Source: Capitulum mitella
Lineage: Eukaryota; Arthropoda; Thecostraca; Pollicipedomorpha; Pollicipedidae
DNA: 64,000 bases
NCBI GenBank assembly: GCA_030062745.1
Contig: CP099842.1
Span: 6,057,822-6,121,821 of the forward strand
Reading direction: 5' to 3'
The translations under genes were made by a program, and so were the position numbers. Under the pieces are notes generated by a model that saw only the letters and a list, made by a program, of their open reading frames with translations, was not told the origin of the DNA and made no database searches. Of the stretch, positions 674 through 64,000 are shown piece after piece (position 1 is the first letter of the stretch; every line of letters starts with the position of its first letter).

Positions 674-1906
674 TTAACCCGCGCACGACCGTCCGTCGGC
701 GACGATCACGTCCGGCTGGGGAGTGGGGGGTGGTGGGGTGGGCGGTTCACCGTCCTCCTCTAACCCACGAACGGTTGGTCACACGATAAAAATAAGCACA
801 CCGTTGGAAAGCTTGTGACTAGTAGAGCTCGAGACTGGTCTCATTTTTAGTTTTAGATAATATGTAAGCAGTTTACGTCGTATATATGTTTCATCATAAC
901 CGACTGAATGAGACTGAGAAACGGCCTTAATCTCAAGGGCTGTGACTAATAACGCAAAGGTAAAGACACCAGCGCGCAAGTAAGGGTTCGCGGATGCCGA
1001 TACATGTCTGATTGCTCAGATTTGTTCAACATATACGCCGAAACGATGAGTTAAAAACACGGCAATTTTTGCGCCGGCTGTCGGCGGGCGCCGCAGGCGT
1101 ACGCAGAAAGAAATTAAGGGAAACTAATTTCAGCGTTCCTTTATTTCCGCGACATAAACCTATCCATGTCAATTTCGTTGATCTTAGTGGTTCTTGTGAC
1201 GGTTTCTCATGTTTAAATTTTGGAAAAATTCATTAGTTACCAATCTACACAATTGACGGAGCTTTATTTGCAAGAGCCTGTTTATTTCGAAAATATGCAA
1301 TTTTCAAACTTTTTGAGGTTCTTGCTATTACTTACGTCTGTGCAAGCCAGTTCTGCCGTTTTCTACCCATTCTGAGTAATTTACTGTTTATTTTGACAAT
1401 GGTACATTTTAGCTCACAATAGTTATTCGTGATCTGACCTCAGGTCAAAGGTTGGAAGTCATTGATACTTTGGCCAGTGACGATAACTAGATGTCTGCTT
1501 CACTCCACACTAAAAATGTTATGAAAAATTCCGCCAATTTCCGAAAAAAACACATGCCTTAAAAATAAGCATGACGTTAGGTCAATGACCCGGAGAATTC
1601 CGAAAAATCTGAGATGGCAGATTTGTTACATCTATCGAGATTACTAATCCCCGAACGTATTATTGTGATATCTTGTTTTGCCAAAAAGTTAGAGGGCGCT
1701 AAGCTTCTTTGGGCATAGGTCCGTTTGACCTGACCTAGGTCAGACATCAGACTTGACCTGAGGTCAAAACGTTGACACAAGGCGTAAAAATGATCAAGCA
1801 AAAGGTACACGACGTTTCGTGGCTCTGTGTTTGTTCGTTCTCTCGCAATCCTAGAAAAACCTCAGGAGGGGGGCGGTCAACTGCCCCTCCAGTCGGGGCG
1901 GGTTAA
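674..1906 (+). mobile_element. TTAA-flanked non-autonomous DNA transposon, copy 1 (short family)
   Basis: The element is bounded by TTAA at 674-677 and TTAA at 1903-1906. Its ends are similar inverted repeats starting CCCGC and containing GACTGG(G/A)GGGG followed by GGCGGTT(C/G)ACCG. TTAA target duplications with CCC-starting ends are a piggyBac-superfamily signature. No transposase is seen, so it is probably a MITE-like derivative. It interrupts the PLE-1 coding sequence, so it is younger than PLE-1. The stretch from 905 to its end is closely matched, in the same orientation, by 15450-16460. Its 3' half carries several copies of the AGGTCA hexamer. Confidence 0.75.
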
Positions 1907-2232
1907 AACGGATATGTTGAAGAAAAAGACATTATTGGCGCCACCATAGTTTTCTTATTAAGTTCAGTGGTATATTTACCACTAGCATGCGCTATAAACA
2001 ATGTATCTAAGAAAGGTATCCACCCTGTGTTTTTGTAATGATCTGAACGTTCAGCTGTAAATTTTGTGGGCGGATGAAGACTGTTTATAAACTGAAGAAA
2101 TTTATAGTTTTTTCAAGCCATGAGTTTCCGAGCCATAAGTCCATATGCCAAGAACGTCGTCTATGTGCCGCAGGTAAAGAGACGGGTGCGCGTTTTTAAC
2201 GGTAAAAATCATTGATTCAACTTCGTTCATGA
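1907..2232 (-). pseudogene. PLE-1 reverse transcriptase, palm with catalytic motif C
   Basis: On the minus strand this reads as the palm of a Penelope-like reverse transcriptase. The motif LYLRHIDDVLGIW, containing the catalytic Asp pair (motif C), lies near 2140-2185. It is followed, after a stop and frameshifts, by PPTKFTAERSD and WIPFLDTL and then GKYTTEL. The upstream continuation (motif B) is at 6353-6425, split off by the hAT-type element at 2233-6352. The downstream continuation is at 673 and below, split off by the TTAA element. Stops at several positions show it is inactive. Confidence 0.88.
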
Positions 2233-2397
2233 CAGGGCCTATTTTAAGGAAAAATGACTGCGGGGGCAATTCTGCGAACGAGACGCATTGGCTGAGACCA
2301 CCCCCCCGGCATTTATGTTCTCCTTATTGAATTTTGTCCACTTCATATATATATTCCTAAGGAAAGGGCATATATATATGTAAATGCTTTTCTAAGG

Positions 2398-2401
2398 AAG
2401 G

Positions 2402-2453
<52 letters not shown>

Positions 2454-2457
2454 CCTT
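2398..2457. repeat. (TA)n microsatellite inside an inverted repeat
   Basis: A 60-bp perfect palindrome: AAGGTCTG, about 44 bp of alternating TA, then CAGACCTT. It lies in the left subterminal part of the hAT-type element. A shorter TA tract flanked by CCTAAGG sits just upstream at 2346-2385. It could extrude as a cruciform. Confidence 0.9.
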
Positions 2458-2978
2458 ATATATAAGGGCGCATTACGATGAACACTTCCACAGCGCTCTG
2501 TCATTAACTGATATGTCTTTTGGAGGAAATCATGTTTGCAAAATATGGCCTTGGTCCAGCACTCTTAAGCACTTTCACACGAAGACTGTATGTCGTTTGT
2601 GCTGGATTTTATTTTATTTCGATGAAATTCGCGCCGGCTTTTGTGCATTCCGAGCCCATTAAATTCAAAGAACACCATTTCATTTATCCCCAGCAAGAAC
2701 TCATTCTCCATGGACTTGTGATCCTTGGGAGATTCGCTCAGGGAGAGATGTGTCTGAAATGCCCCCAAGAGTGTTTTGTGCTTCAGTTTTTTAAACCAAG
2801 CGCACGATATGCATAAAATGCACATCATAGTACTCCTGTTGACACAGTGGATCGAAAGACACTTCGCATTCTGTCTCAGGTCATACGTCACTGGTCACTG
2901 GCCCTGTCGGCAGCAGTGTGGCTTAGGTGGGAATGGTACTTCAGTCCTCTTAGTGGTCTCGGGGTTCTGGCGACGATA

Positions 2979-5185
2979 CTATTCGACGACTTGCAGCAGG
3001 TACTGCTTTTGCCCTTCATCCTTCGTCAGTACCTTGTTGTATACTTGGATAAGAGCCACAGCTCGTTCGGCGAAGTCGCTAACTACCGCGATCCCGCACA
3101 GGACTTCCTTAGCGTTCGTGAAGCCAGGTGCTGTCTCCCAATCAGCGGGATCGGCGGCAAAGAAGTCCATGTTGATGCCGTAGGCTTTCAGGTTGCCCAC
3201 CGACTTTGCGGTAATGAAGTCGACGATGATCTTCCTGGGACGAGAACCTCCTTTTCTGTGAGATCCACCTGCACTCGCTGGGAGGACTCTCCGATCCCTG
3301 TTCCTGGAGTGCCGCGATCATCCTCGTCTTCATCTCACACGGCACGCCCTCGTCGGAGAACGACACATCAGCCAGTTCTTCGCTGGGGCACCATAATAGG
3401 TGATTGTTATAATAAATCATATGTCGACTATAATGTCATAATAGATAATAGGTGATCGACAAACTCCTTGGAGATCCCCTTCGAAATTTCAGCATTCACA
3501 TCAGGCCTTGCAGAACGGCCAGGTCGTGCACGGAAGCGCTGACCGCCGATGAAGAGCAGAACCATGTACTGACGTACAAAACAACCATGAAAGAGACGAA
3601 GCGCTTGAGTGCTCCCAATTCACTGAGAGTCGCGGAGAATTGATGGCAAAACAAGAAGATCTTGATCCCGCAGATTATGCGCCCCATCCATCTGGCTCGA
3701 TGGAACCATCTATCTGGCACGTTGGAGAGCACCTGGCTGGGGAACTTGATTCCCCGTGGAGGCTCTTGACCAAAGGGAATAATCGAGACCTCAAAGAACC
3801 AACGATAATCATCGCTAGGCTGGATTTCGGCGAGTTTCTCACGGCAGAAGGCGACGAAACGATCATTGGAAGAGAAAAACGTCTCGGTCACTGCTGGCTC
3901 CAGGTCTTCATACACCATAGGTTCAAACTTGTTCCAATCAATGAGCCTCCATCTCTTCTTGAAGCTCTTGAACAAGGAGATCCCGGTCCCGAGGACGGAC
4001 CGAAGCGCGTGGAAAAAGCCGCCTCTGCCACCAGTTCGAAGATATGATGACGACAAGCAAAGTGAATAGGCCGTCACTGAAGCTTCTGCTGAAGAAGCGT
4101 GTTTGCTCCCACAACTTGTCCAGTATTGCTGGAGGTGGTGTCGAAGCTCATGCCGACGACGTTGTCCGAAACCCCCCCCCAGTCTTCCAGACAAAGCGCG
4201 ACAACGTCGGCTGGCGTTGCTCCGGCTCTACTTGCAACTTCCAAACACCGAAGAGCTTGGCGGCACTTCTTGGACCGGTTACAATGACAGAGTCAATCCA
4301 CCTTTTCCTTTCCACTGTCAGTAACAGCTTGCCGTCCCAGTGGACCACCAGGTTGGGTGACGCGGAGAAAGAATGCTAGATTTCGTCCGCAATGGCTTTC
4401 CTCTGCGATCTACGTGCGCGTCTGCCCGAGCTTCTGTGATCGCCAGTTCAGAGGAGTCGTGGCCGAGGACCGAAGCCGTCGCCGATAGGAAGTGAATTGC
4501 AGAGCGATCATTGAGCTTGGTCCGATCGAGGGCTGCTGCCTGACCAGGAGTGGCGATGTTTTTGGCTCTCCTGCAGGGCCGCTTCGAAGGCATGGCCAAG
4601 GGCTGCGGGTCATCCTGATCTGTCAGTTGTGTGTTGTCGGTAGGCGAGTATTCCAGCTGGGCAGTTGCCTCATGCTCGGTCTGCTGTTTAATGTAACGGC
4701 GCGCCCTTTAAAGCTTCGGCCTACTGTTGTCGTTGAAGAGCTCGCTCCTCCTTCTCAGAAGGGAACTTATCGAATACCACCATGACGCCTCGGCGACGTG
4801 GCTCCCTTTCGGCCTAGAGAATGTCTTTATCCTCTTGGTTTTGATGATGTTAATGGTGCCGACAAGGGCAAGGTCAAAAAGATTGTTAAGGTTGTCCCTA
4901 AATCCATTCTTCTTGTCAATTTCCTGGGTGAACCTCCAGAATTTGCCTTTGGTACTGGTCAAGCTTCCTGTTGAGCTTCTTTATCACGTCCCGCTCCGGT
5001 GCAGTGAGAATACGGGCTTTGTTCCACACCTTCATCATTTCGCGGACGATCTGTGTTTTGACCTACTTCTGGGTAAGCCTATCCACACGGTGGGACTGAA
5101 AATATTGCTGCAGCACTTCTCCCCGCGAAGGCAGTTCTGAGCACTGATCAACCAAAATTCGGCTTTTTTCTCGTGTTGCAGCCAT
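2979..5185 (-). pseudogene. Decayed transposase of the hAT-type element
   Basis: A transposase-like protein of about 735 codons, broken into several frames. The start chosen is the ATG at 5185 (MAATREKSRILVDQ). In order: an N-terminal helical part (REMMKVWNKARILTAPERDV) with an in-frame stop near 5068; NLNNLFDLALVG near 4880; ALDRTKLNDRSAIHFLSAT near 4520; VHWDGKLL near 4340; SFDTTSSNTGQVVGAN near 4120, which resembles the catalytic-Asp strand of an RNase H-like domain; HFACRHHIFELV; FGPSSGP; RWRLIDWNKFEPMV; EPPRGIKF; ARWMGRIICGIKIFLF; SEELADVSFSDEGVP; and a C-terminus with FAERAVALI, LTKDEGQKQYLLQVVE and a stop at 2979. I recognise this as a dispersed invertebrate protein family with similar motifs but unsettled function. 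The enclosing element points to a transposase. A ~50-bp insertion lies at about 3395-3450. Confidence 0.8.
3393..3455. repeat. Short insertion bounded by direct repeats in the transposase
   Basis: The sequence TCACCTATTAT (reverse strand) occurs twice about 50 bp apart. The intervening AT-rich bases interrupt the transposase frame between KEFVDHL and the SEEL motif. It looks like a small tandem duplication or a footprint. Confidence 0.55.
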
Positions 5186-6285
5186 AGTGGCACAGACTTC
5201 CGTTATAAAAGGTATTTTCTGCATTGACGCAGGTGGTCGTTAAATATCCTGACGTCTAAGAACGCGCGGGAAATTGCCAGACCGGCACCGTGGGTTACCG
5301 TGGCATGGCAAGGCGCGGTACTTCAAATATATTAGTCACAGTCTGCAAAGGATGGTCAGAATATTGGCGAGATGTTGCGGCAGCTTCGATTCTTCCCTTA
5401 ATGAGACAGTAGGTTGCCTGTCCGGGATGGTTTCTGTTGATCTAATCTATCCCCAAAATACATTTTCTCACCGAATTTTGGCCAGATGTTTTTCAACACT
5501 GCGCAGAAGTGTAAAAGCTGTCCCAGCACAGGCAGAACAAACTTCTCCATTTCAAGGTTATCGGCCCCAAAATAAAAAAGTCACCTCAGACTGAAATATT
5601 CGCCTTAGGCCCGCCTCAGTGAGATATCATCAACATTCGTCATTATCAGCAGTCTGGGCCATGCCATGTTCGTTAAGCAGATGAAGCATGCTCATGGGGT
5701 GCTCAAACCCATGCACCAGAAGTAGCAAGATTGACGGTTTTAATATATGACTGATTGATTTTCCGTTTTCCTCGCGTAAAACTCGGGTTTAACCGCCTAG
5801 TTCAATGAAGTTCTACCAATCAGGTACTGGTATTTTAGCAGGGTTTTCGGATCAGGATGATTGGTGATGACTACAGCACTGCTGAACTGTTACCGCATTC
5901 ATATAAACCTTATCTCACCATAGCGAAACTGCCATGCGCACCAGCTCGCCCTTCAGTTTTCTTGCGCTTGAACACATCAAAGATGGTTATCATCATTCTT
6001 AACGTGCTTACGATGCAATGAAACGCCTTGGCCCCCCACCAGACAATCGCGGCATCGGGTGCCGGCGTACTAATTACGAAACACGCTCGCCAGCGGTCAC
6101 TAGGTGTGCCTGCAATACATATTATAAAGTGATGCTTCTAAGTGTGCTCCCACATTACTCAGTGATTCAACACATCCTTCGTTGATAAGATGCTGCTTTG
6201 CGAGCGCAGCGCTTTATGGAATGCCTTCCTGGGTACGCTAGTACACCTGGCTGTTTTTTTTCTTTGCATGGGCAAAGAATCTTGA

Positions 6286-6329
6286 CTGGGGGGGCAAAGT
6301 GTCCCACTGGGGGACATTTGCCCCCCCAG
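6286..6329. repeat. Subterminal hairpin of the hAT-type element
   Basis: Arms CTGGGGGGGCAAA and TTTGCCCCCCCAG pair, extended by GTCCC/GGGAC with one-base slippage and a short ACTG loop. It lies 23 bp inside the right terminus, where hAT transposases often bind subterminal sites; that role is inferred here. Confidence 0.75.
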
Positions 6330-6352
6330 TTAACATGTTAAAATAGGCCCTG

Positions 6353-6425
6353 GTTCATGAAAACTATAGCCAAAGGCGGTCCTATTTTACTGCCCATCGC
6401 GCCGCGGATATCAGCATGGCTTCCA
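6353..6425 (-). pseudogene. PLE-1 reverse transcriptase motif B fragment
   Basis: The minus strand reads RGAMGSKIGPPLAIVFMNE across the insertion site, the conserved motif B of Penelope-like reverse transcriptases. The last codons are completed by the sequence left of 2232 when the hAT-type element and one target copy are removed. Homology stops at about 6425, where the strand of the PLE sequence switches. Confidence 0.85.
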
Positions 6426-6429
6426 TGGC

Positions 6430-7023
6430 TGATCCAGTTACGGAAATGGATCTCAAAAGAGTTAGGCAAAAAGTTACCAGTGTATGTACAAACTATAAAC
6501 CCAAACCAAGCCAAATCACAACCAAGCTCATTTAGATGCCCCTAAGGATATTTGCAATGATAATGATCTAATAATTAAGCAGTCAGATAAAACCAAAGAC
6601 TTTGTCATTCTCACACGGCAGAATTACATTCGAAAGGCGGTTGAAATTACTTCCACTTATGAAGAAATAGGGAAAAATCCCACACCAAAACCTGACGCCG
6701 CGACGAAAGCCGTTATTATCAAAACTTTATCTGGTAAAGTGCCTGGTAAGTTAATTAAAGCCATCAAGCCATCAGGTTATCGGACAGCTGAGTTTTATGG
6801 CCTGTCCAAGACCCACAAGGCTGGGAACCCTTTGCGTCCTATTGTTTTGGATGCTGTAACGCTGTTGAAAAACTCTTGGTTTCTACTGCGCATCATTTCT
6901 CAGTTATTGATCTTTGTGCCGGCACATCTGAGTAACACGTATCAGTACCTGGACAGGGTACGGGAAAAGTTTCCCTGTGGGAATGCGAAATGGGAAAACA
7001 CGCGCATCCCCATTTCGCGTTAA
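6430..7023 (+). pseudogene. Inverted 5' part of a PLE reverse transcriptase (fingers)
   Basis: Plus-strand PLE sequence. First a frame reading LKRVRQKVTSVC and YKPKPSQITT. After a frameshift an open frame from about 6499 reads NDLIIKQSDKTKDFVIL, GKVPGKLIKAIKPSGYRTAE, FYGLSKTHKAGNPLRPIV, FLLRIISQLL and YQYLDRVREKFPCG. These are the finger and early-palm motifs that normally lie upstream of motif B. It abuts the minus-strand motif B at 6425 head to head, as expected from a twin-priming-type inversion of one PLE insertion, with about 100 codons (including motif A) missing at the junction. It could instead be a separate PLE copy. The frame ends at 7023 after losing similarity near 6975. Confidence 0.85.
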
Positions 7024-14149: not shown

Positions 14150-15445
14150 GAGGTCCGTTTTAATCTAGGGTCAAAGGATCGAAGGTCAAGGCGAAATGGA
14201 GCATCCCAAAGGAACGTACTTGGGTAAAACTTTTTTAAGAGTAAGCGTCGCCACCTATCACTAAATGATGCGCACCAATAGATAGAGTACATGAAAGTCT
14301 AGGTGGGTTATCCGCCGGTAATGACCTCAAGGTCGAAGATCAAGGTCAAAACGAGTGTTGAATATTTACGTGCCTTTTTACCAGAAAGGCATGCCACCTG
14401 CCACCACGTGATGGAAACCAATAGATACAACGCATAAGAATCTAAGTAGATCATCCGCCGAAATTGGCCTCAAGGTGAAACGTCTAGGTCAAAACGATCG
14501 TTGAAAACTTCCGTACCTTTTAAGGAGTAGCTGGGGTTTGCTAAAACTAAGTGATAGTTCGCAATAGATGTAGCATATGAAAGTCTAGGTAGGCCACCCC
14601 CAAAATGACCCCAAGTTTAAAGGTTAAGGTCAAAACGAACGTTGAAAAATTACGCACCTTCTTCCTAGTATGTGACGCTATCTGTCACTTATCCACTCAT
14701 AAGTTAAGACGAGGTTTTCAGCGATCGTTTTCATCTTGGCCTTTGACTTTGAGGTCAATTTCGGTGGATGATCCACCTAGATTTTTATGTGCTCTTTTTG
14801 TTGACGGCCATCGCTGAGTGTTAGATGGCGACACATACTGGGGAAAAGGTATGTAAATTGTCCACACTCATTCTTACCTTGACGTCACACCTTGAGGTCA
14901 ACTTGGGGGATGACCCACTAAGATTTCCATGTCCTCTATCTATTGGCGCCCATCACGTAGTGGTAGGTGGTGCCACCTACTGGTAAAAATCTACGTAAAT
15001 TTTCAATGTTCGTTTGTACCCTGACATAACTGCTTGTACCCGGGCATGCTCGTGAAAAGTAGGTAGTTTTTAAATGCTCATTTTCACCTTTACCTTTGAC
15101 CTTAAGGTCAATTTCAGCAGATGACTCAGCTGGGTTTTTATGCCTATTGGTGTTCATCACATGATGGTAGGCGGCGCCACCTACTCGTAAAAAGGCACGT
15201 GAATTTTCAACACTCATTTTGACCTTGACCTCGGACTTTGAGGTCATCTTCGGTGGATGACGCACCTAGGCTTTCACGTGGTCGATCTGTTGGTGCGCAT
15301 CACTTACTGATGCGCACCACTTACTCGTAAAAAAGGCAGGCAAATTTTCAACGCTCGTTTTGACCCTGACCTTTGATTCTGGGGTAAATTCCGGCAGATG
15401 ACCCACCTAGACTTTTATGCACTCTATCTTTTGGTGCGCATCACT
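14150..15445. repeat. Tandem array that switches orientation at its centre
   Basis: Units of about 140 bp. In the left part the anchor GAAAGTCTAGGTGG-type sequence occurs in plus orientation near 14292, 14431 and 14576. From about 14700 the reverse complement (CCACCTAGATTTTCATG type) occurs near 14775, 14919, 15128, 15263 and 15405. Each unit has a paired AGGTCAAGGTCAAAACG-type block and GGTGGTGCCACCT-type symmetrical sequence. The array is therefore an inverted repeat of tandem repeats with its axis near 14690. It abuts the truncated TTAA element at 15450. Confidence 0.85.
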
Positions 15446-15449
15446 TACC

Positions 15450-16460
15450 CGACTGCATGAGGCCGAGAAACGGCCTGAATCTCGACGGCTGTGGCTGATA
15501 ACGCATAGGTAAAGGCACCAGCGCACAAGTAAAGGTCCACGAATGCCGATACACGTCTAATTTCTCAGATTTGTTCAATATATATTCCGAAACGTTGAGT
15601 TAAAGACACGGCAATTTTCGCGCCGGCTGTGGGCGTGCGCCGCAGCCGTACGCAGTAAGAAATTAACGTGAACTAATTTTAGCGTTCCTTCATTTTCGCG
15701 AAAAGCTTATCCATGTGAATTTGATTGATCTTAGTGGTTCTTGTAATGGTTTTTCATGCTTAACTTTTGGAACAATTCATTAATTACCAATCTACACAAC
15801 TGGCGGAGCTTTATTCGCTTGAGCCTGTTTATTTCCAAAATATGCAATTTTTCAAACTTTTTGAAGTTCCTGATATTACTTACGTCTGTGCAAGCCAGTT
15901 CTACCCATTTTCTACCCATTCTGAGTAATTCATCGCTGATTTTGACTATGGTACATTTTGGCTCACAACAGTTATTCGTGACCTGACCTCAGATCAAAGG
16001 CTGGAAGTCATTGATACTTTGCCCAATGACGGTAACTATATGTCTGCTTGACTCCACACTAAAAATGCTATGAAATATTCCGTCAATTTCCAAAAAAAAC
16101 GACGACATGTATTAAAAATGGGCTTGCCCTTAGGTCAATGACCCGGAAAATTCTGAAGAATCTGAGATAGCAGAGTTGTTGCATCTATCAAGATCACTAA
16201 TCCCTGAAAGTATTATTGTGATGTCTTGTTTTGCAAAAAAGTTACAGGGCGCTGAACTGTTTTGGACATAGGTCCGTTTGACCCGACCTAGGTCAGGCAT
16301 TTGACCTGACCCGAGGTCAAAATGTTGACACAAAGTGTAAAAGTAATCAAGCAAAAGGTACACGACATTTCGTGGCTCTGTGTTTGTTCGTTCTCTCGCA
16401 GTCTCAGAAAAACCTCAGGGAGGGTGGTCAACTGCCCCCCCCCAGTCGGGGGCGGGTTAA
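15450..16460 (+). mobile_element. TTAA-flanked element, copy 2 (5'-truncated)
   Basis: Collinear with 905-1906 and well conserved; for example CGGCAATTTTCGCGCCGGCT matches with few changes. It ends CAGTCGGGGGCGGG followed by TTAA (16457-16460). The first ~230 bases of copy 1 are missing and replaced by the inverted array. It is followed immediately by PLE-3 sequence, so this element again sits in a PLE. Confidence 0.75.
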
Positions 16461-28869: not shown

Positions 28870-30630
28870 ACACCACAAGGCCGAATTTTAAGAGCAAAGC
28901 ACGGGGAGGATTTCGGGCAGTCGAATTATAAGAAACGTAAAAACAAAATCTGGGTACTTCGCCAACCTTGTTTCGTCTAACCTCGCCCGACTTCAGTTTT
29001 GACGGGCTGGCGTGACATGACCAGCGGCCGCACCTAGCTGAAGCTCCGTCTCAGGGGTTTGGTGGCACGTTGCATTCTGCTACATTTTCGGTTTCTGGAC
29101 GGTGCGGGTGCGCGCGCCAAGCGTCCGAGGTTGCATGTGTTGCATGCAGCCCCAACGGAGGTTGCATATATTGTGGGCGAAATCCGACACATTTTCGAAA
29201 AACTTAGACGAGCGCCCCTTCCGGGCGCTCAGTCTCGGAAACTGCGGGTCTCACCGACACAAAACCGGGTGGGTTCGACAACGAATCGATTGGAGAATTG
29301 CATTGCACGAAAGAGGCCGAATCAGGACCAGCACGTACATGGCGTGTGCTGACCGCGGGAACACGAAAAACGCCCACTTTGCAAGGTTTCAAAATGGGGC
29401 AATGATCTCGGTTACCGGCAAAGACACGAGCCCAGGGACAAGATGACCAACCACAACAAGGTACCGGCAGAAAACCACTGAGCGGAATCGACCTGCTCCG
29501 TCTGACGGGGTAGTCATGGCGGGTGATCAATATGCGGTTTCGACTGGGATTTCGAATGCAAAGGTGTCAATGTCCGACACAAAATCGATACCAACGGAAA
29601 GACCATTCTTTTGCCGTCCCGATAACGCGAAACACTAATTAGGTGTTCCGCGGCTGTTCCGACCAAACAACGCGACGCGAACCGATGCAGGAGGTGATTT
29701 GGCCTATTTGCAAGTGAGCTCGAGACAGTTGTCAACGGCCGACACGGCGTCCTTTCCAGCGCCTGATCTCGACAACCATGCATCGCACCGAGACAAGACC
29801 TGCTCTGTTCGACGCAAAATCGATTGGAGAACTCCGCATGTATGTAAAGCACTGCAAGCAGGAACCAGCACGTGACGTGTGCTAGCCATGGAACACTAAA
29901 AAGGTTATTTGCAGGCTTTGCAAAGTACGGTTAGGCTAAATTCAAACTTCGGTTATGACGGCTCGGCGTCTCTGTAGCCCCTCGTTGCAAGGTAAAGACT
30001 GCATGTTATTCCATGGGACCGACCTCATCCACGAAACGGGACAGCCACGTCCACGCGCTTAAAGTGGAGGGGATCTTCGGTTTTCGGATTCTTTGTGTTT
30101 ACACCGATGGCATGGAGAGTGATATCGTTGGCAAATTAGCACCAATGGAACGAACGAATCTTGTCCGTTTTGGCACTGCCATACAGTAATAATAATCTTT
30201 TTAGCTTTTACTGCTAAGACGCATCAGGTAAGCCGGTGTAAGTCGTGATTTTGCGGAAAATCGATATGTTTCGAGATATTTGTGTTCGACTTAAGATTGT
30301 GGCGACGCCAATTGGAACATGCCGCTCAAAATGCCACCAGTATGTTCCTTAATCAACTGTAAACACGTTAGTATAAGCCATCCGGTGCGTTTCGTTGTGG
30401 TCGGTTCCAATGAAAGGGTACAAAAACGGTCTGCAAGTCGCGTTTTTTGCCTTTTCCCTTTGCTGAATACGTTTGAAAACCAGCTCATCTTGCTCTTAAC
30501 TTAAGACTGCATTTTTCCTGTATGTTAAATACAGTAAACGCTTATAATCATGCGATCCAAGAGAACTTTTCACGAGCAGTTTTCTTTGATCGGTTTCCTG
30601 TATGTATTAACTTACATAGGATCACACGCT

Positions 30631-30764
30631 TCTCGATTTGTGTTAGAACTGAAAGCAATAAAATCATTTTTTTGCAAAAAAGCATTTAAACTTGACAAAT
30701 ACGCTCTCGATTTGTGTTAGAACTGAAAGCAATAAAATCATTTTTTTGCAAAAAAGCATTTCAA
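30631..30764 (+). repeat. 74-bp near-perfect tandem duplication in the left arm
   Basis: TCTCGATTTGTGTTAGAACT and the following ~50 bases occur twice, 74 bp apart, with only a few differences. The right arm has a single diverged counterpart near 35085, so this duplication is younger than the palindrome. Confidence 0.9.
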
Positions 30765-31289
30765 CCTAGATTCCTTTAGCAAATAAACCACAAAAGATCG
30801 GGGGAAATTGCGCTCCTCAGCTTAAGGCAATACTGAAACTACGAGCTTACACAACACATGTAGGCGTGTCTTAATACATCTGTATTTAATGATTCCAAGG
30901 CGCCGGGCAGTAAGACATTTGATGATTACTGAAGTTCTCTCTTTTAGTGGCCTCCTTTTTTGACTTGTTAAGCCAATTTTTTTTCCTTTTGCTATTTCTG
31001 GGATACAATTCCTAATACATTTACAAAAAGACAGAAAAAGTCGACGAAGACAACCAAGAAAAATCGTTGTAATAGGAATTAGGGTTTGGTCAGATATAGA
31101 TGAAGATAGACGAACACAAATATGGTTTCACAGAGACGGATAGATATTGGCAAACAGAGATAAATGCAGGGAATGGGACAAAGGCAAAAAAAATGACAGA
31201 GACAGTCAGAAACGAGGTGACTTTGGGGGAACAAAGAAAGACTGAGTCAATGTGGGGGAGATTAAAGAGCGCCATGGAGACTGGCAGAT

Positions 31290-31560
31290 TGCCAGTGGTC
31301 GGCGGACCGACAGAGATCGACGGAGACCAGTGGAGAGAGACGGAGGTCGGTAAAGACCAAGCGAAACAGACGGAAGAGATTGGTTGAGACCGGCAGAGAC
31401 CGACGAACATCAAACGAGTTTTAAAGATACCGAAATACTGATCGACTGGAACCAAAGGAGACCACCAGAGATTAATGGAGATCGACGTAGATCAAAGGAG
31501 ACCAACCGAAACGGATGGAGGTCCAGCAGCACCGAGGAAGATTTGCTGACACCGAGAACA
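31290..31560 (+). repeat. Short-period degenerate repeats in the left arm
   Basis: GACGGAGACC-, GATCGACGGAG- and CAGAGACCGACG-type words recur about every 11-12 bases. Mirrored on the opposite strand at 33980-34420 (TCGGTCTCCGTCG type). Apparent open frames here are low-complexity products. Confidence 0.8.
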
Positions 31561-31714
31561 GACCGAGTGCGAGCAATTTTCACGGTCACTGAAGCTGTGG
31601 AAACTGATGGAGATGGAAAAAAACCATGTTGCACCTGCCTAACCTGAGAACCTGGGAAAACGAAAACAGAACCGGAATTTGACCGTGGCTGCTTGATATC
31701 CTACTGCGCTGCAT

Positions 31715-32555
31715 GAAGGGAAATTGATCTCTATTAGTTGTGGAAAAATACTGTGGTCGAAGCGCACTGCGCTCTTTTACGAAGAATCTGACAGACAGCG
31801 TGATGCACCGTGCTCAAACAGAGCGTGCGAACAAGCGCGAAATGCAAAGACATACGGGCGGACCAACCGGCCGAGGGCAGTCTCTGTCCATGGAAGTTCC
31901 CAGCTCGATTGTAAAATAGTACTGTGAGCGGTTTGATCAACCGTTCAATGGGAACCGCACTGAAGCGCGCAGCGCGATTGCGAAACTGTGCTGGGGTGCT
32001 GGCGTGGGAATTTTGCGGAGACCAGACTGCGGACTTTTGATTCAAGAAACAGATGCCGTATGTTGGCCATGAAGCATGCAATGCAATCATGGGACGGTCC
32101 CTAGGTCAATCCGGTCAGCTTTTCGACGGAAACTTGATTCGAATGTGTTGTGTCCTCGTTCACCTGGTCACCAGAGCCAGACGTCTCGTGCAGCAGTGTA
32201 TTGCCAGGGGACTCCAGGCACACTAATGCCCCTTTCCAGGTCGAACATTCAAGGTCGCATCATACGGAACGGTAGTGGCCAATTGGGAATTTGCTGCGGC
32301 CCTGGTACCCGCCCGGTGGCAGCCAATCACGTGGCAGGGTCGGGCTGGTCACCGTGCGGTGGTCAGTGCCTGCGGCGGCGGGCGACGCAGCAGCTGGTCG
32401 CCGATCGGCGGGTAGGCTGTGCCGCTCACAATAGAATGCGAAATTCGCACACGCAAGCAGCTTCAAATGCGAGGCAAGCGGCCAAAAAACGGCTGGTGCG
32501 TCCGAGAAACGCATGCGCCTTGTGGCGTACATGGGACCTAGGGAGTCGCATTTTG
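31715..32555. other. Left-arm-specific segment of the palindrome
   Basis: About 840 bp present only in the left arm; its flanks rejoin at the equivalent of 33810-33850 in the right arm. It has GC-rich parts and a 197-codon plus-strand frame (32076-32669) with no recognised similarity. Either an insertion into the left arm or a deletion from the right. Confidence 0.6.
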
Positions 32556-32790
32556 GGGTCACATGGATTACTGGAAGCCGGTCAAAGGCCGTCTTGTCTT
32601 GTTTCTATATCTACTGGCCCGCCAGCCGAATTCCCGTATTTTTGTGCGATTTGTTCATCTCGCTTGTGATCACAGCACGCATGGACCGATAAGAACGGAA
32701 TCCAGTAGGATCGCCACATGTATGAAGAACACTTATTGGTGATATCCTTGCCCTAATCTTTAGGGGTAAGGATGCTCCATATTGAACTCT

Positions 32791-33559
32791 TAGGTCATAC
32801 TGATATGTATTGTACGTCTCCGTCATCTTACATTGTAAAAAAACCGACAACGAAGCAGGGAATTATAACTGTACGTCGAACTGCAAACATGGTTGTCTTT
32901 AAAGCGTCATTAAAGCCGTGACCTAAAACTACATTGTTTTCACATTATTTGCACAATGGATGCAAAAAAAGCTACGAAAAGGCCCAGGAAATTAAGTTTA
33001 TTAATTCCGGAGACATGAAATGCACGAGGGGAGGCGTAAAACGTCCCCCAGCCTCTCGTCCATAACGCGTCAAAATGAATCACACTTCAGTCAACCAATG
33101 TCCTTCAAACACGGTGTTTCTAAGGTCTTTATATATGACGGATATATATGACGTTGAAGGATGCCCTCTACTTTTATACCAAGTTTCAGGTTGATATCAG
33201 GTTGGGTCAAGGAGCTATGACATAAAATGTCAATGCGCGTGCCCTACATCACAGCAGTTCAGACAGGCCCTGGCTATCTTATCTTATCTTATCTTGGACC
33301 AGGGCCTATCTTAACATGTTAATTGGGGGGGGGGGGGAATCCTCATCAGTGACCGCCAAATCCCCCCACACAGCAACATCCCCCAGTGAAAACATTGCTT
33401 TGCCAGAAGCGCACGCCCGACGAGGTCTTTGACACGCTTGAGGCAGAGGCTGTGAATAGTGAATGTTTATGGCAAAGGCGCCATTCGTAAATAAAAAAGA
33501 AGAAAACAGAACATGGACGCACATACTTTTTTAACGTCAGGCAGGTTTCAAATTCCGTC
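32791..33559. other. Centre of the palindrome with repeat fragments
   Basis: Unpaired spacer. It includes a fragment of the 1.2 kb TTAA family (about 33145-33255: CCAAGTTTCAGGTTGATATC, then AGGTTGGGTCAAGGAG), an (ATCTT)n run at 33275-33295, and one terminus of the hAT-type family at 33300-33322. Confidence 0.65.
33300..33345 (+). mobile_element. Isolated terminus of the hAT-type family
   Basis: CAGGGCCTATCTTAACATGT and the next 3 bases match the right end of the 2233-6352 element (reverse complement of 6330-6352) at 22 of 23 positions. A G run follows, as in that element. No matching second end was found to the right, so this is a truncated copy. Confidence 0.75.
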
Positions 33560-36500
33560 AGCTAGAATTTGACTGGCGTAAATGAGTGCAGAAACTAGGG
33601 TAAGAATATTACCAAAAAGTGGTCTTTATTCTTGTGACGTTTCTGCTGGATTCCGTTCTGACTGGTTCAGTCTCATGAACTGCTGCGATCGCAAGCAAGA
33701 TGAACAGATCGCGCAAAAATACTGCAAATCCGGCTGGTGGGTCCATAGGCGTAGAAGCGGGAGCAGACAGCCTTTGGCCGGCTTTCCTCCGCCCATGTAA
33801 GCTCCAGAACGCCCCGCGGTATAAATCAGTCACTGCCACAAACCTGCTCTGTTTTCACCTTCCCAGGCTCCCAGTTTGGATACGTGCAACATGCTTTTTT
33901 CCATCTCCATCAGTTTTCACAGCCTCAGTCACCGTGAAGATTGCTCGTACTCAGTCTGTTCCCGTCGGTGTTAGCAAATCTTCCGGCGGTGCCCTTGGCC
34001 CTCCATCCGTTTTGGTCAGCCTCCTTCGATATACCTCGATCTCCATTAATCTCTGTTTGTCTTCTTTGGTTTTAATCAGTCTATCAGTATTCCCGTCTCT
34101 TTAAAATCGTTTGATGTCCATCAGCCTCTGTTGGTCTCAGCCAGTCTCCGTCGGTTCCTTTTGCTCTTTACCGGCCTCCACCGCTCTTCATCGGTCTCCG
34201 TCGATCTCTGTTGGTCCCTCGACCAATGTCAATCTCTGCCAGTCTCCTCGGTGTTCCTCAGTCTCCCCCCATCCACTCAGCCCTTACTTGTCTCCCAACA
34301 GTCACTCTCGTTTTTGTCGGTCTCTGTCTCCTTTTCTGTCTTCGTCCCATTCCCTGTATCCTGTCTCTACTACCAATATCTGTCCGTCTCTGTGTAACCA
34401 TATTTGTGTTTGTCTGTCCGCATCTATATCTAACCGAACCTTCACGCCTGTTCAGAGAGCGTATTTCAGCTCCCGAAAATGAAGGTCGCGTCAAGTTCAA
34501 ACCGAAGAGGATGGAATTATACATTCTTAGACGATACCAGGAAAATGCAATCTTTTGATCGGGACGTTTCACAAAAATTCCTGCCTTCTTGCTTTCCTGG
34601 CAGGTGAGAGCCCCAAAAGATTTTTTCTGTATGTTTTTTAGCTCATTGGGTTGATATGTATTATAACTATAATGGCTCCAGGTACGACAAATTTCAATTT
34701 TGGTGGGCTTTTTAGAGAGTTCAAACTTTGCTGATCATGTTGAAAAACCATCAAAAACACGTAGGCATCTTTCAGAGCTAACAGACAGTGACAAAAAAAA
34801 ATCCACTGGCTTCACAAGCTGAAAAAAGAAGTTGAAACCGAACTGAAAAGAAATGAAAATATCGCGAACTGTCATCAACATCTCTTAAAAATCAACATCA
34901 TTATCTGTTGCTTAGTCCACGATGACTTGGAAGCGGTAAGTGCAGATGTATTAAGATATGCCTATATCTGTTATACGGGCTTGCAGTTTCAGTACAGCCT
35001 TAAGCTCAGTAGCGCAATTTCGACCCAATCTTTTGGGGTTAATTTGGTAATGAGATCTGGGTTAAAATGTTCATTGACAGAGAAATGATATCATTGCTTT
35101 TAACTGAAACAGAAATTCAGAAGTTTAGGACTCCCTGAAAATAAGAGATGCAAGAAACCGATCAAGAGAACGGCTCGTGCAGTTTCTTGAATCTCATGAT
35201 CACAAACATTCATTTTATTAAGCATACAGGACAATGCAATTCTTAGAAAAGAACAGGAATATGGTAGTGTTTTTAACGGAATGCTCCCAAAGGCGTTGTA
35301 ACAGTCTTATATCGAACACGCAGGCCTCGAAATGTATCGATTTCTCGCAAAACACGACTTGCACCGGTTTACGTGATGCGTCATGGTGGTAACAGTTTTG
35401 TGAATCACTATTATTTTGTGGTAGAGTTAAAACGATGGAAATCGTTTCGTTCCATCGGTGTTGATTTTGCCAACAATTTCACCCTCCATGCCATCGCAGT
35501 CACGGTGTAAACACAAACGATCCAAAGCCGAAGATGCCCCCACTTTGAGCGCGTGCCGCGGCTGTCCTGTTTCGTGGATGAGGTCGGTCTTATGTAATAA
35601 TATGCAGTCTTTACCTCGTGACGAGGGGCTACAGAGACGCCGAGCCGTCACAACTGAAGGTTGAATTTAGTCTTACCGTACTTTGCAAAGCTTGCAAATG
35701 GCCTTTTTAGGTTCCAGTGGCTAGCACGCGTCACGTGCTGTTTCCCAGGTGCATTGTTTTACATACAGGCGGAGTTTTCCAATCGATTTTGCGTCGAACA
35801 GAGCAGGTTTCGCCTCGGTGTGACCAACGGTTGTCGAGATAAGGCGCTGGAAAGGACGCCGTGTCGGCCGTTGACAACTGTTTCGAGCTCACTCGAAAAT
35901 AGACGAAATCACCTTCTGCATCGGTTCGCGTGGCGTTGCTTGGTCGAAACGGCCGCGGCACACCTGATTAGTGTTTCGCGTTATCGGGACGGCAAAAGAA
36001 CGGTCTTTCCGTTGATATCGATTTTATGTTAGATATTGACACCTTTGCATTCGAAATCCCAGTCGAAAACTGCATATTGAGCACCCGCCACGACTACCCC
36101 GTCAGACGGAGCAGGTCGAATCCGCTCAATGATTTTCTGCCGGTACCTTGTTGTGGTTGGTCACCTTGTCCTTGGGCTCGTATCTTGAACGGTTGCCGAG
36201 ATGATAACCCCATCGAGATCGTGACTCCATTTTGAAACATTGCCACACGCCCAATTTTCGTGCTCCCGTGGCCAGCACGCGCCACGTGCCGGCCCCGGCT
36301 CGGCCTCTGACGTGCGATGCCATTCTCCAGTCGATTCGTTGTCGAACGCATCCGATTTTGTGTCGGTGCGACCCGCAGTTTCCAAGATCGAGCGCCCGGA
36401 AGCGGTGTGCGTCTAAGTTTTGCGAAAATGTGTCTGCTTCCGCCCAAAAGACACACGACTTTCCATGGGGCTCCCAACGCGGCCGCGCAGCCCCGCTGTC

Positions 36501-36700
36501 CTGAAGCCTGAACATCTAACATATTGCACTGTGCCACCAAACCCCTGAGACGGCCAAGTTTCAGCCACGTGCGACCGTTAGTCTTGTCACACCAGCCCAT
36601 CAAAACCGCACTCCGACGAGACTCGTTACCCATAATTGGACAGGCCGAAATCCCCTCAGTGATTTGTTTTTAACGTGGGCCTTGGGCTGGGCGGTCTCAG
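33560..36700 (-). repeat. Right arm of the ~7.8 kb imperfect palindrome
   Basis: Diverged reverse complement of the left arm. Internally it holds two related units about 550 bp apart: GTGGCTAGCACGCGTCACGTG near 35715 and GTGGCCAGCACGCGCCACGTG near 36262, each followed by CAATCGATT/CAGTCGATT and a GTCGAAC(A/G)-type block. The sub-repeats are mirrored in the left arm near 29320 and 29870. The frame at 35750-36032 is also open in the mirrored segment 29560-29852 with a similar translation (NRFCVEQSR, ERTPCRPLTTVSSS, SVSRYRDGKR). Confidence 0.85.
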
Positions 36701-62849: not shown

Positions 62850-63420
62850 ACGTCCGCCCCCAGCCCACCCCGTCCCTCCGAGCAACCCGGCATACGCGGG
62901 GTCGTCGGGCGAGCTCTCGCCAGGTGTTTCCCAGCATCTCTTCCGTTCAGATCCACATGTCACGTTGATGCGTTGCCGGAGGTCCTCCAGATCTTTTACC
63001 CTTGTCTGGCATACTAAGCCTTTCACGTAACTCCATAGGAAAAAAAACAAGCGTGGTCAGGTCAGCAGATTCCGCCGGCCACGCCGTCGGTTCTCTTCTT
63101 CCCATCCACCTCTCGGGAAACTCTGAGTCTGGAAAATTCTTCACTGTCTTCGCAGTGGGCGGCGCTCCATCTTGTTGGAATGCATGCCCCCTAGGAGCCC
63201 TCTCAGCCGCAAAGTTTTCATGCATGTTCAAGTAGGTTTCTCCTGAAACAGTGCTCCCTTCGGACCACAACATACATTGACCTTGGGGCTGTCCGTCTCG
63301 TTGTAGGGTCTCAACTTCAGGTCCTTCTTTAGGACATCGTGTAGAGATAAGCGAGGCATGCCCCGCTCTCGGAGGCATGCCCAGCTGCCCTTTCCACCGA
63401 TTGTTTCGGACTTTGCTGAT
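62850..63420 (-). pseudogene. Tc1/mariner-superfamily transposase remnant (3' part)
   Basis: Minus-strand frames read a short SLISTRCPKEGPEVETL/KDLKLRPYN stretch, then HAFQQDGAPPTAKTVKNF with the second catalytic Asp block (FQQDGAPPH type), PERWMGRREPTAWPAESADL with the third catalytic Asp (WPxxSPDLTPLDFF type), and, shifted, FFLWSYVKGLVCQTRVKDLE and DLRQRINV. This is the C-terminal two-thirds of an insect-type mariner/Tc1 transposase. A central piece between KLRPYN and the Asp block is deleted and at least two frameshifts are present. It is unlike the 20587-21308 copy, so two subfamilies occur. Confidence 0.85.
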
Positions 63421-64000
63421 ATGTTTCCCTAACCTGCTCGATCTTCTCACGATGCCGCTATGGTCGCTTTTGTTTACCGGTCCCTTCTTCCTTTTCGCTG
63501 AACTCGTTACACGTAGCTTTTGATACCTTCTGAGAATGCACTGACGAGGGCGGGAGGGGGGGGGAACCTGCCCAAAGTTGGGACGAAATAGCCTCTGGGA
63601 TTGTGGGAGACTGGTAGTGATCTGTCAAAAGGAGCATTGTAATTTTTGTTCATTGCTTATTCCAGGTATGGCAAGGGCGAGGACTAAGGGCAACTTTTCA
63701 GCAGCCGAACTGAACAAAAGTAAAACGCGTACTGGGTACCCTGTACATATAAACATAAAAACATACAACCAATTCCATTTTAACTGAATATGTAGATTTC
63801 ATTATTTTCCATCTGAAGAATTATAAGTTTAAGGGTCACGCACGATATCATTATACGTCATGACGTTCCAACGACACAGCATAACGTCTCACGATATTAT
63901 TCACTGTCATTACCGAGCTGTTTAAAAATTTGCATAGAATAAATGACCTAAGAGTGAAAACATTACTTCCGGGGTAGGTATGTGGAAGAACGCAAGTTGG
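63421..64000. other. Intergenic, nothing recognised
   Basis: May include the 5' part of the transposase remnant near 63421-63480 (basic residues on the minus strand). G run at 63549. Nothing else recognised. Confidence 0.4.

What the first reader, a model, noticed from the sequence alone, without database searches (positions are those of the whole stretch)
2225..6360. Complete hAT-type transposon caught inside a retroelement, with restored reading frame
GTTCATGA lies on both sides of a 4,120-bp element whose ends are inverted CAGGGCCTATTTTAA. Deleting the element plus one GTTCATGA joins GPPLAIVF to MNEVES and on to YLRHIDDV in one frame of a Penelope-like reverse transcriptase. Boundaries, duplication and target are therefore proven from one locus.
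Basis: seen in the sequence. Interest (0 to 1): 0.85.

Follow-up and report, generated by a model that had tools for sequence, protein, structure and literature searches.

The report
Dead hAT-like transposon inside a retroelement
A 4.1-kb cut-and-paste DNA transposon, now broken, sits inside an older broken retrotransposon in an animal-like genome; its ends and target duplication are unusually clear, but this is ordinary genome fossil layering.

Summary
A 4,120-bp element (2233-6352) has perfect 15-bp terminal inverted repeats CAGGGCCTATTTTAA and an exact 8-bp duplication GTTCATGA on both sides, the only such pair in 64 kb outside a (TA)n repeat. A second end of the same family at 33300-33331 (30 of 32 bases) starts exactly at CAGGG, which supports that terminus independently. 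A 13-bp subterminal motif occurs three times, only in the element's ends. The minus strand carries a decayed transposase with acidic residues and CxxH in a hAT-like order. 'Complete' is true of the ends only: the gene has at least three frame changes plus stops. Removing the element and one duplication joins a Penelope-like RT block. That target is itself broken, and its N-terminal part lies head-to-head on the plus strand, an arrangement reported for Penelope elements (passages of PMC3846280). No library or collection searched here gave a homologue for either protein, so the hAT and Penelope names rest on ends, duplication, residue layout and recalled motifs. New member of a known kind; low interest.

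The parts
2225..2232 (.). target site duplication GTTCATGA, left copy
2233..6352 (-). 4,120-bp hAT-like element (transposase on minus strand)
2233..2247 (+). left TIR CAGGGCCTATTTTAA
   Evidence: I16
2257..2269 (+). subterminal motif ACTGCGGGGGCAA
2406..2449 (.). (TA)22 microsatellite inside the element
2982..3254 (-). transposase C-terminal block with FAERAVALI (candidate catalytic E at codon 3068)
3499..3981 (-). transposase middle block (ISLFKSFKKRW to DLAVLQGLM, contains HRARWM)
3981..4160 (-). transposase block with candidate second D (FDTTSSNTG, codon 4142) and CxxH (CRHH, C codon 4055)
4322..4348 (-). VVHWDGKLL, candidate first catalytic D (codon 4336)
5150..5185 (-). possible start of the transposase (MAATREKSRILV)
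   Evidence: start inferred
6285..6297 (+). subterminal motif ACTGGGGGGGCAA
6318..6330 (-). subterminal motif ACTGGGGGGGCAA, opposite orientation; with the previous one part of the 20-nt arms 6279-6298/6317-6336
   Evidence: (I11)
6338..6352 (-). right TIR
   Evidence: I16
6353..6360 (.). target site duplication GTTCATGA, right copy
6361..6409 (-). Penelope-like RT, block from IRGAMGS upstream of the insertion
1906..2232 (-). Penelope-like RT, continuation MNEVES...YLRHIDDV...HPP...TYPF; stops where another repeat (892-1906) begins
6428..6846 (+). N-terminal part of a Penelope-like RT in opposite orientation (head-to-head), ...FYGLSKTHK...PLRPIV
33300..33331 (+). second end of the same transposon family, 30 of 32 bases, terminus at CAGGG

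Best explanation
A hAT-superfamily-like cut-and-paste DNA transposon inserted once into a Penelope-like retroelement copy. Its transposase would have recognised the CAGGGCC ends and the ACTGSGGGGGCAA subterminal repeats, excised the element and joined it across an 8-bp staggered target; gap repair then gave the GTTCATGA duplication. Shown: ends, duplication, target junction, a second copy of one end, decay of the gene. Inferred: catalytic mechanism, hAT membership, and end binding to the subterminal motif.
For: Perfect 15-bp TIR with exact 8-bp TSD, unique in the window outside (TA)n. A second family end at 33300 whose similarity begins at the terminal C. Subterminal motif three times without mismatch, only in the element ends; the two other window sites have two mismatches. 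Decayed minus-strand transposase with D-(about 65)-D-29-CxxH-329-E, counted by coordinates across frame changes. Passages of PMC4763223 give 8-bp duplications as a hAT feature and put CxxH (H268 in Hermes) in the active site, a motif also conserved in several superfamilies; Hermes D180/D248/E572 are recalled. Joined flanks read as one RT block.
Against: No hAT or other transposase family in Pfam for six minus-strand ORFs of the element (E up to 1; one of them matched an unrelated viral family at E 0.07, below its cut-off) or for the read-through composite (E up to 10). PDB gave two unrelated weak hits (E 0.035 and 0.063). The TSD fits the Hermes preference nTnnnnAn (passage of PMC10368747) at one of its two fixed positions. 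AlphaFold of the middle block is unusable (mean pLDDT 47.6).
Confidence: 0.85

Rival explanations
1. A cut-and-paste transposon of another superfamily that also makes 8-bp duplications (P, Merlin, Novosib, some MULEs, names and lengths recalled, or an undescribed one).
For: No hAT domain hit in Pfam; CxxH is shared by several superfamilies (passage of PMC4763223).
Against: CAGGG ends, 15-bp TIR, D-D-CxxH-E spacing and an ER-containing C-terminal block fit hAT best (end and motif consensus recalled; spacing).
Confidence: 0.12
2. Chance inverted repeat and direct repeat, no transposition.
For: Looser pairs are common by chance: 6+8 pairs 44 times and 15-bp inverted pairs alone 9 times in 20 random sequences.
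Against: The exact 15+8 combination, transposase remnants between the ends, a second copy of one end, and an RT block rejoined at the duplication.
Confidence: 0.01
3. About the target only: the Penelope-like sequence is two separate fragments or a later genomic inversion, not one retroelement insertion with an inverted 5' part.
For: Only an N-terminal part lies on the plus strand, and I could not recognise the segment between PLRPIV and GAMGS.
Against: Head-to-head and permuted inverted parts are described for Penelope elements (passages of PMC3846280). This rival does not touch the hAT-like insertion.
Confidence: 0.4

Closest known systems
hAT superfamily DNA transposons (Hermes type)
   Same: 8-bp TSD, short TIR, subterminal repeats, D-D-CxxH-E order with a long insertion before E
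   Different: No Pfam hAT domain hit in this decayed copy; HRARWM lies about 120 codons after CxxH, against 51 residues between H268 and W319 in Hermes, if the two tryptophans correspond at all (not tested); clade (Ac, Buster, Tip, hATm) not assignable here
hATm family (PMC6004678, passages)
   Same: hAT with 8- or 9-bp TSD
   Different: hATm ends are TAGGGTG...CACCCTA; here CAGGGCC...GGCCCTG
Penelope-like elements (Penelope group in rotifers, PMC3846280, passages)
   Same: RT blocks FYGLSKTHK, PLRPIV, GAMGS, YLRHIDDV (motifs recalled) and head-to-head inverted arrangement
   Different: No GIY-YIG endonuclease or pLTR noticed (not specifically searched for); copy cut short at 1906 and frame-shifted

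Membership tests
hAT superfamily | 8-bp target site duplication | tested here: met
   GTTCATGA both sides, cannot be slid; one locus only
hAT superfamily | short TIRs beginning CAG (consensus recalled) | tested here: met
   CAGGGCCTATTTTAA, 15 of 15; the consensus itself comes from no call
hAT superfamily | DDE residues with CxxH after the second D | tested here: inconclusive
   order and spacing found across three frames, but residues were picked by eye without an alignment to a hAT protein
hAT superfamily | C-terminal hAT dimerisation domain (PF05699) | tested here: inconclusive
   no hit at E up to 10 for the 436-aa composite nor at E up to 1 for the C-terminal ORF 2979-3317; one decayed sequence, so absence is weak
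hAT superfamily | BED zinc finger at N-terminus | not tested
   N-terminal frame too broken; the attempt on 4817-5185 was rejected for stops
hAT superfamily | placement in a transposase tree | not testable with these tools
   no eukaryotic collection; no relatives found
Penelope-like elements | RT core motifs in order | tested here: inconclusive
   recalled motifs present by eye; Pfam and PDB searches negative
Penelope-like elements | GIY-YIG endonuclease or pLTR | not tested
   RT stops at 1906 where another repeat begins, so the endonuclease part would be missing; neither was specifically searched for

The most novel reading that the evidence does not exclude
The element represents a divergent hAT lineage with CAGGGCC ends, an enlarged CxxH-to-RW spacing and G-rich ACTGSGGGGGCAA subterminal repeats, which current Pfam hAT models do not detect.
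Probability: 0.25. Interest if true: 0.3.

Novelty: new member of a known kind. Interest (0 to 1): 0.15.

Why it matters
It gives exact ends, target and a subterminal motif for an unnamed transposon family from one locus, useful for annotating the repeats of this genome and for recognising non-autonomous relatives. It changes no general understanding.

Tried and rejected
Own genome: not held. Relatives of the transposase: none confirmed in viral contigs (9 pattern stretches, 0 confirmed), phages (protein) or plasmids (DNA). A motif pattern gave 8 viral stretches. Comparing all 8 with the composite gave no match better than E 0.22. In the 4 of 8 whose ORFs I listed, two of them only in part, I saw no transposase; L001 and L002 matched inside unrelated predicted proteins. 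A two-motif pattern gave 0 in genome contigs and 0 in viral contigs. Terminal DNA patterns gave 0 in viral contigs and genome contigs. Penelope RT in viral contigs: 12 pattern stretches, 0 confirmed; motif pattern 0. The inverted region 28900-36700 had no match in plasmids. No tRNA (bacterial settings) and no Rfam family in the window. AlphaFold of 3499-4002 minus was too poor for a fold search, so none was made. The weak end at 33258-33272 (12 of 15) is not better than chance as a lone match (mean 1.72 expected) and was not counted as a copy. No partner end with a matching duplication was found for the ends at 33300 or 33272. Paper searches: searches found nothing; one search found one off-topic paper; supplied the papers used. 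PMC4763223, PMC8721813, PMC6004678, PMC10368747 and PMC3846280 were seen as passages only, plus the outline and abstract of PMC8721813.

Full report
Observation. The window holds CAGGGCCTATTTTAA at 2233-2247 and its exact reverse complement at 6338-6352, flanked by GTTCATGA at 2225-2232 and 6353-6360. The neighbouring bases differ on both sides (C against G before it, C against A after it), so the duplication is exactly 8 bp. A scan of the whole window for 15-bp inverted pairs with identical 8-bp outer flanks found this pair and otherwise two (TA)n artefacts. In a scan for CA[AG][GT]G ends with identical 8-bp flanks it scored 15 of 16 between its ends; the only other hit scored 6 of 16. In 20 Markov sequences, 8+8 pairs turned up twice in all, 6+8 pairs 44 times, and 15-bp inverted pairs without a flank condition 9 times. 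The TIR alone is thus not proof; the combination is.

The ends as functional ends. The two ends share more than the 15-bp TIR: the motif ACTGSGGGGGCAA, read off these ends, lies at 2257 (plus), 6285 (plus) and 6330 (minus). With up to two mismatches the whole window holds two further sites, at 4341 and 1893, each with two mismatches. Subterminal repeats bound by BED domains are described for Hermes (passages of PMC10368747); binding here is inferred. A second family end lies at 33300-33331, 30 of 32 bases identical to the right end, E 2.4e-7 in the window, part of it a G run. Its similarity begins at the terminal C, which is independent support for that boundary. By eye its outer 8 bases TCTTGGAC agree with TCATGAAC, the minus-strand reading of the duplication, at 6 of 8; this may be target preference or chance. 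No partner end was found.

The gene. Minus-strand pieces between about 5185 and 2982 carry VVHWDGKLL, FDTTSSNTG, CRHH, HRARWM and FAERAVALI in order, with spacings of about 65 (across a frame change), 29 (D to C) and 329 (C to E, across frame changes) codons. Passages of PMC4763223 put CxxH (Hermes H268) in the active site and describe an insertion domain between the aspartates and the glutamate. The Hermes DDE positions D180, D248 and E572 are recalled (looked for two of them in PMC10368747 and found neither). The family resembles proteins that I recall from cnidarians and arthropods; no call tests that. The reading frame changes at least three times (between 4322 and 4160, near 3981, and between 3295 and 3236) and holds in-frame stops. 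The copy is therefore dead unless helped from elsewhere.

Results against. Pfam gave no hAT or other transposase family for six minus-strand ORFs of the element or for the composite. PDB gave two unrelated weak hits. No collection searched gave a relative. The TSD meets one of the two fixed positions of the Hermes target pattern. The model of the middle block has mean pLDDT 47.6 and was not used. So hAT membership rests on duplication length, ends and residue order.

The target. Joining 2232 to 6361 gives one 103-codon stop-free frame on the minus strand with IRGAMGSKIGPPLAIVFMNEVES and YLRHIDDVLGIW. NYKFLQFINSLHPP, SGKYTTELNKKT and SFSSTYPF follow in another frame from 2109 down to 1906. These fit Penelope-like RT motifs as I recall them; Pfam and PDB gave nothing for them. 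Because 4,128 is divisible by 3 the phase agreement is weak evidence by itself; the continuity of the block is the stronger point. At 6428-6846 on the plus strand lies what reads as the N-terminal part of such an RT (ADPVTEMDLKRVRQ..., FYGLSKTHK, PLRPIV), so the copy is head-to-head at 6410-6427. Passages of PMC3846280 report head-to-head inverted structures and permuted inverted halves in rotifer Penelope elements. The RT reading ends at 1906, where a repeat also present at 15439-16460 begins.

Order of events, inferred: a Penelope-like copy inserted with, or acquired, an inverted N-terminal part; the hAT-like element inserted within its motif block; both then decayed while the element kept both ends and both duplications. 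Whether the Penelope frame was already broken at the time of the insertion cannot be told.

Source. The window has no tRNA or Rfam match, G+C 45.6% and many repeats; an invertebrate animal is my guess from the transposon types and no call names the organism.

Verdict. The finding is real and well delimited, and ordinary: a new member of a known kind in a nested insertion.

Noticed in passing
window 28982-36620: Large old inverted duplication: 28982-30339 vs 36620-35262 (80%), 31083-31698 vs 34440-33820 (79%), 32575-32755 vs 33784-33596 (76%); the solo element end at 33300 lies within it. No plasmid match.
   Followed up: partly
window 33258-33299: A weak, outward-facing second end (CAGGGCCTGTCTGAA, minus, 12 of 15) with 27 bases of TATCT-like simple repeat between it and the 33300 end.
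   Followed up: partly
window 892-1906 and 15439-16460: About 1-kb repeat, 87% identical, ending where the Penelope-like RT reading stops.
   Followed up: partly
window 62950-63624, minus: Fragment reading QQDGAPP...FPERWMGRREPTAWPAESADLT, which I recall as mariner-like transposase; Pfam gave only a sub-threshold DUF4817 (E 0.71).
   Followed up: partly
window 6279-6336: Right end can form a hairpin with 20-nt arms (90%) made of the G-rich subterminal motif in both orientations.
   Followed up: no
window 14230-15448: Cluster of direct and inverted copies of a 140-bp or longer unit.
   Followed up: no
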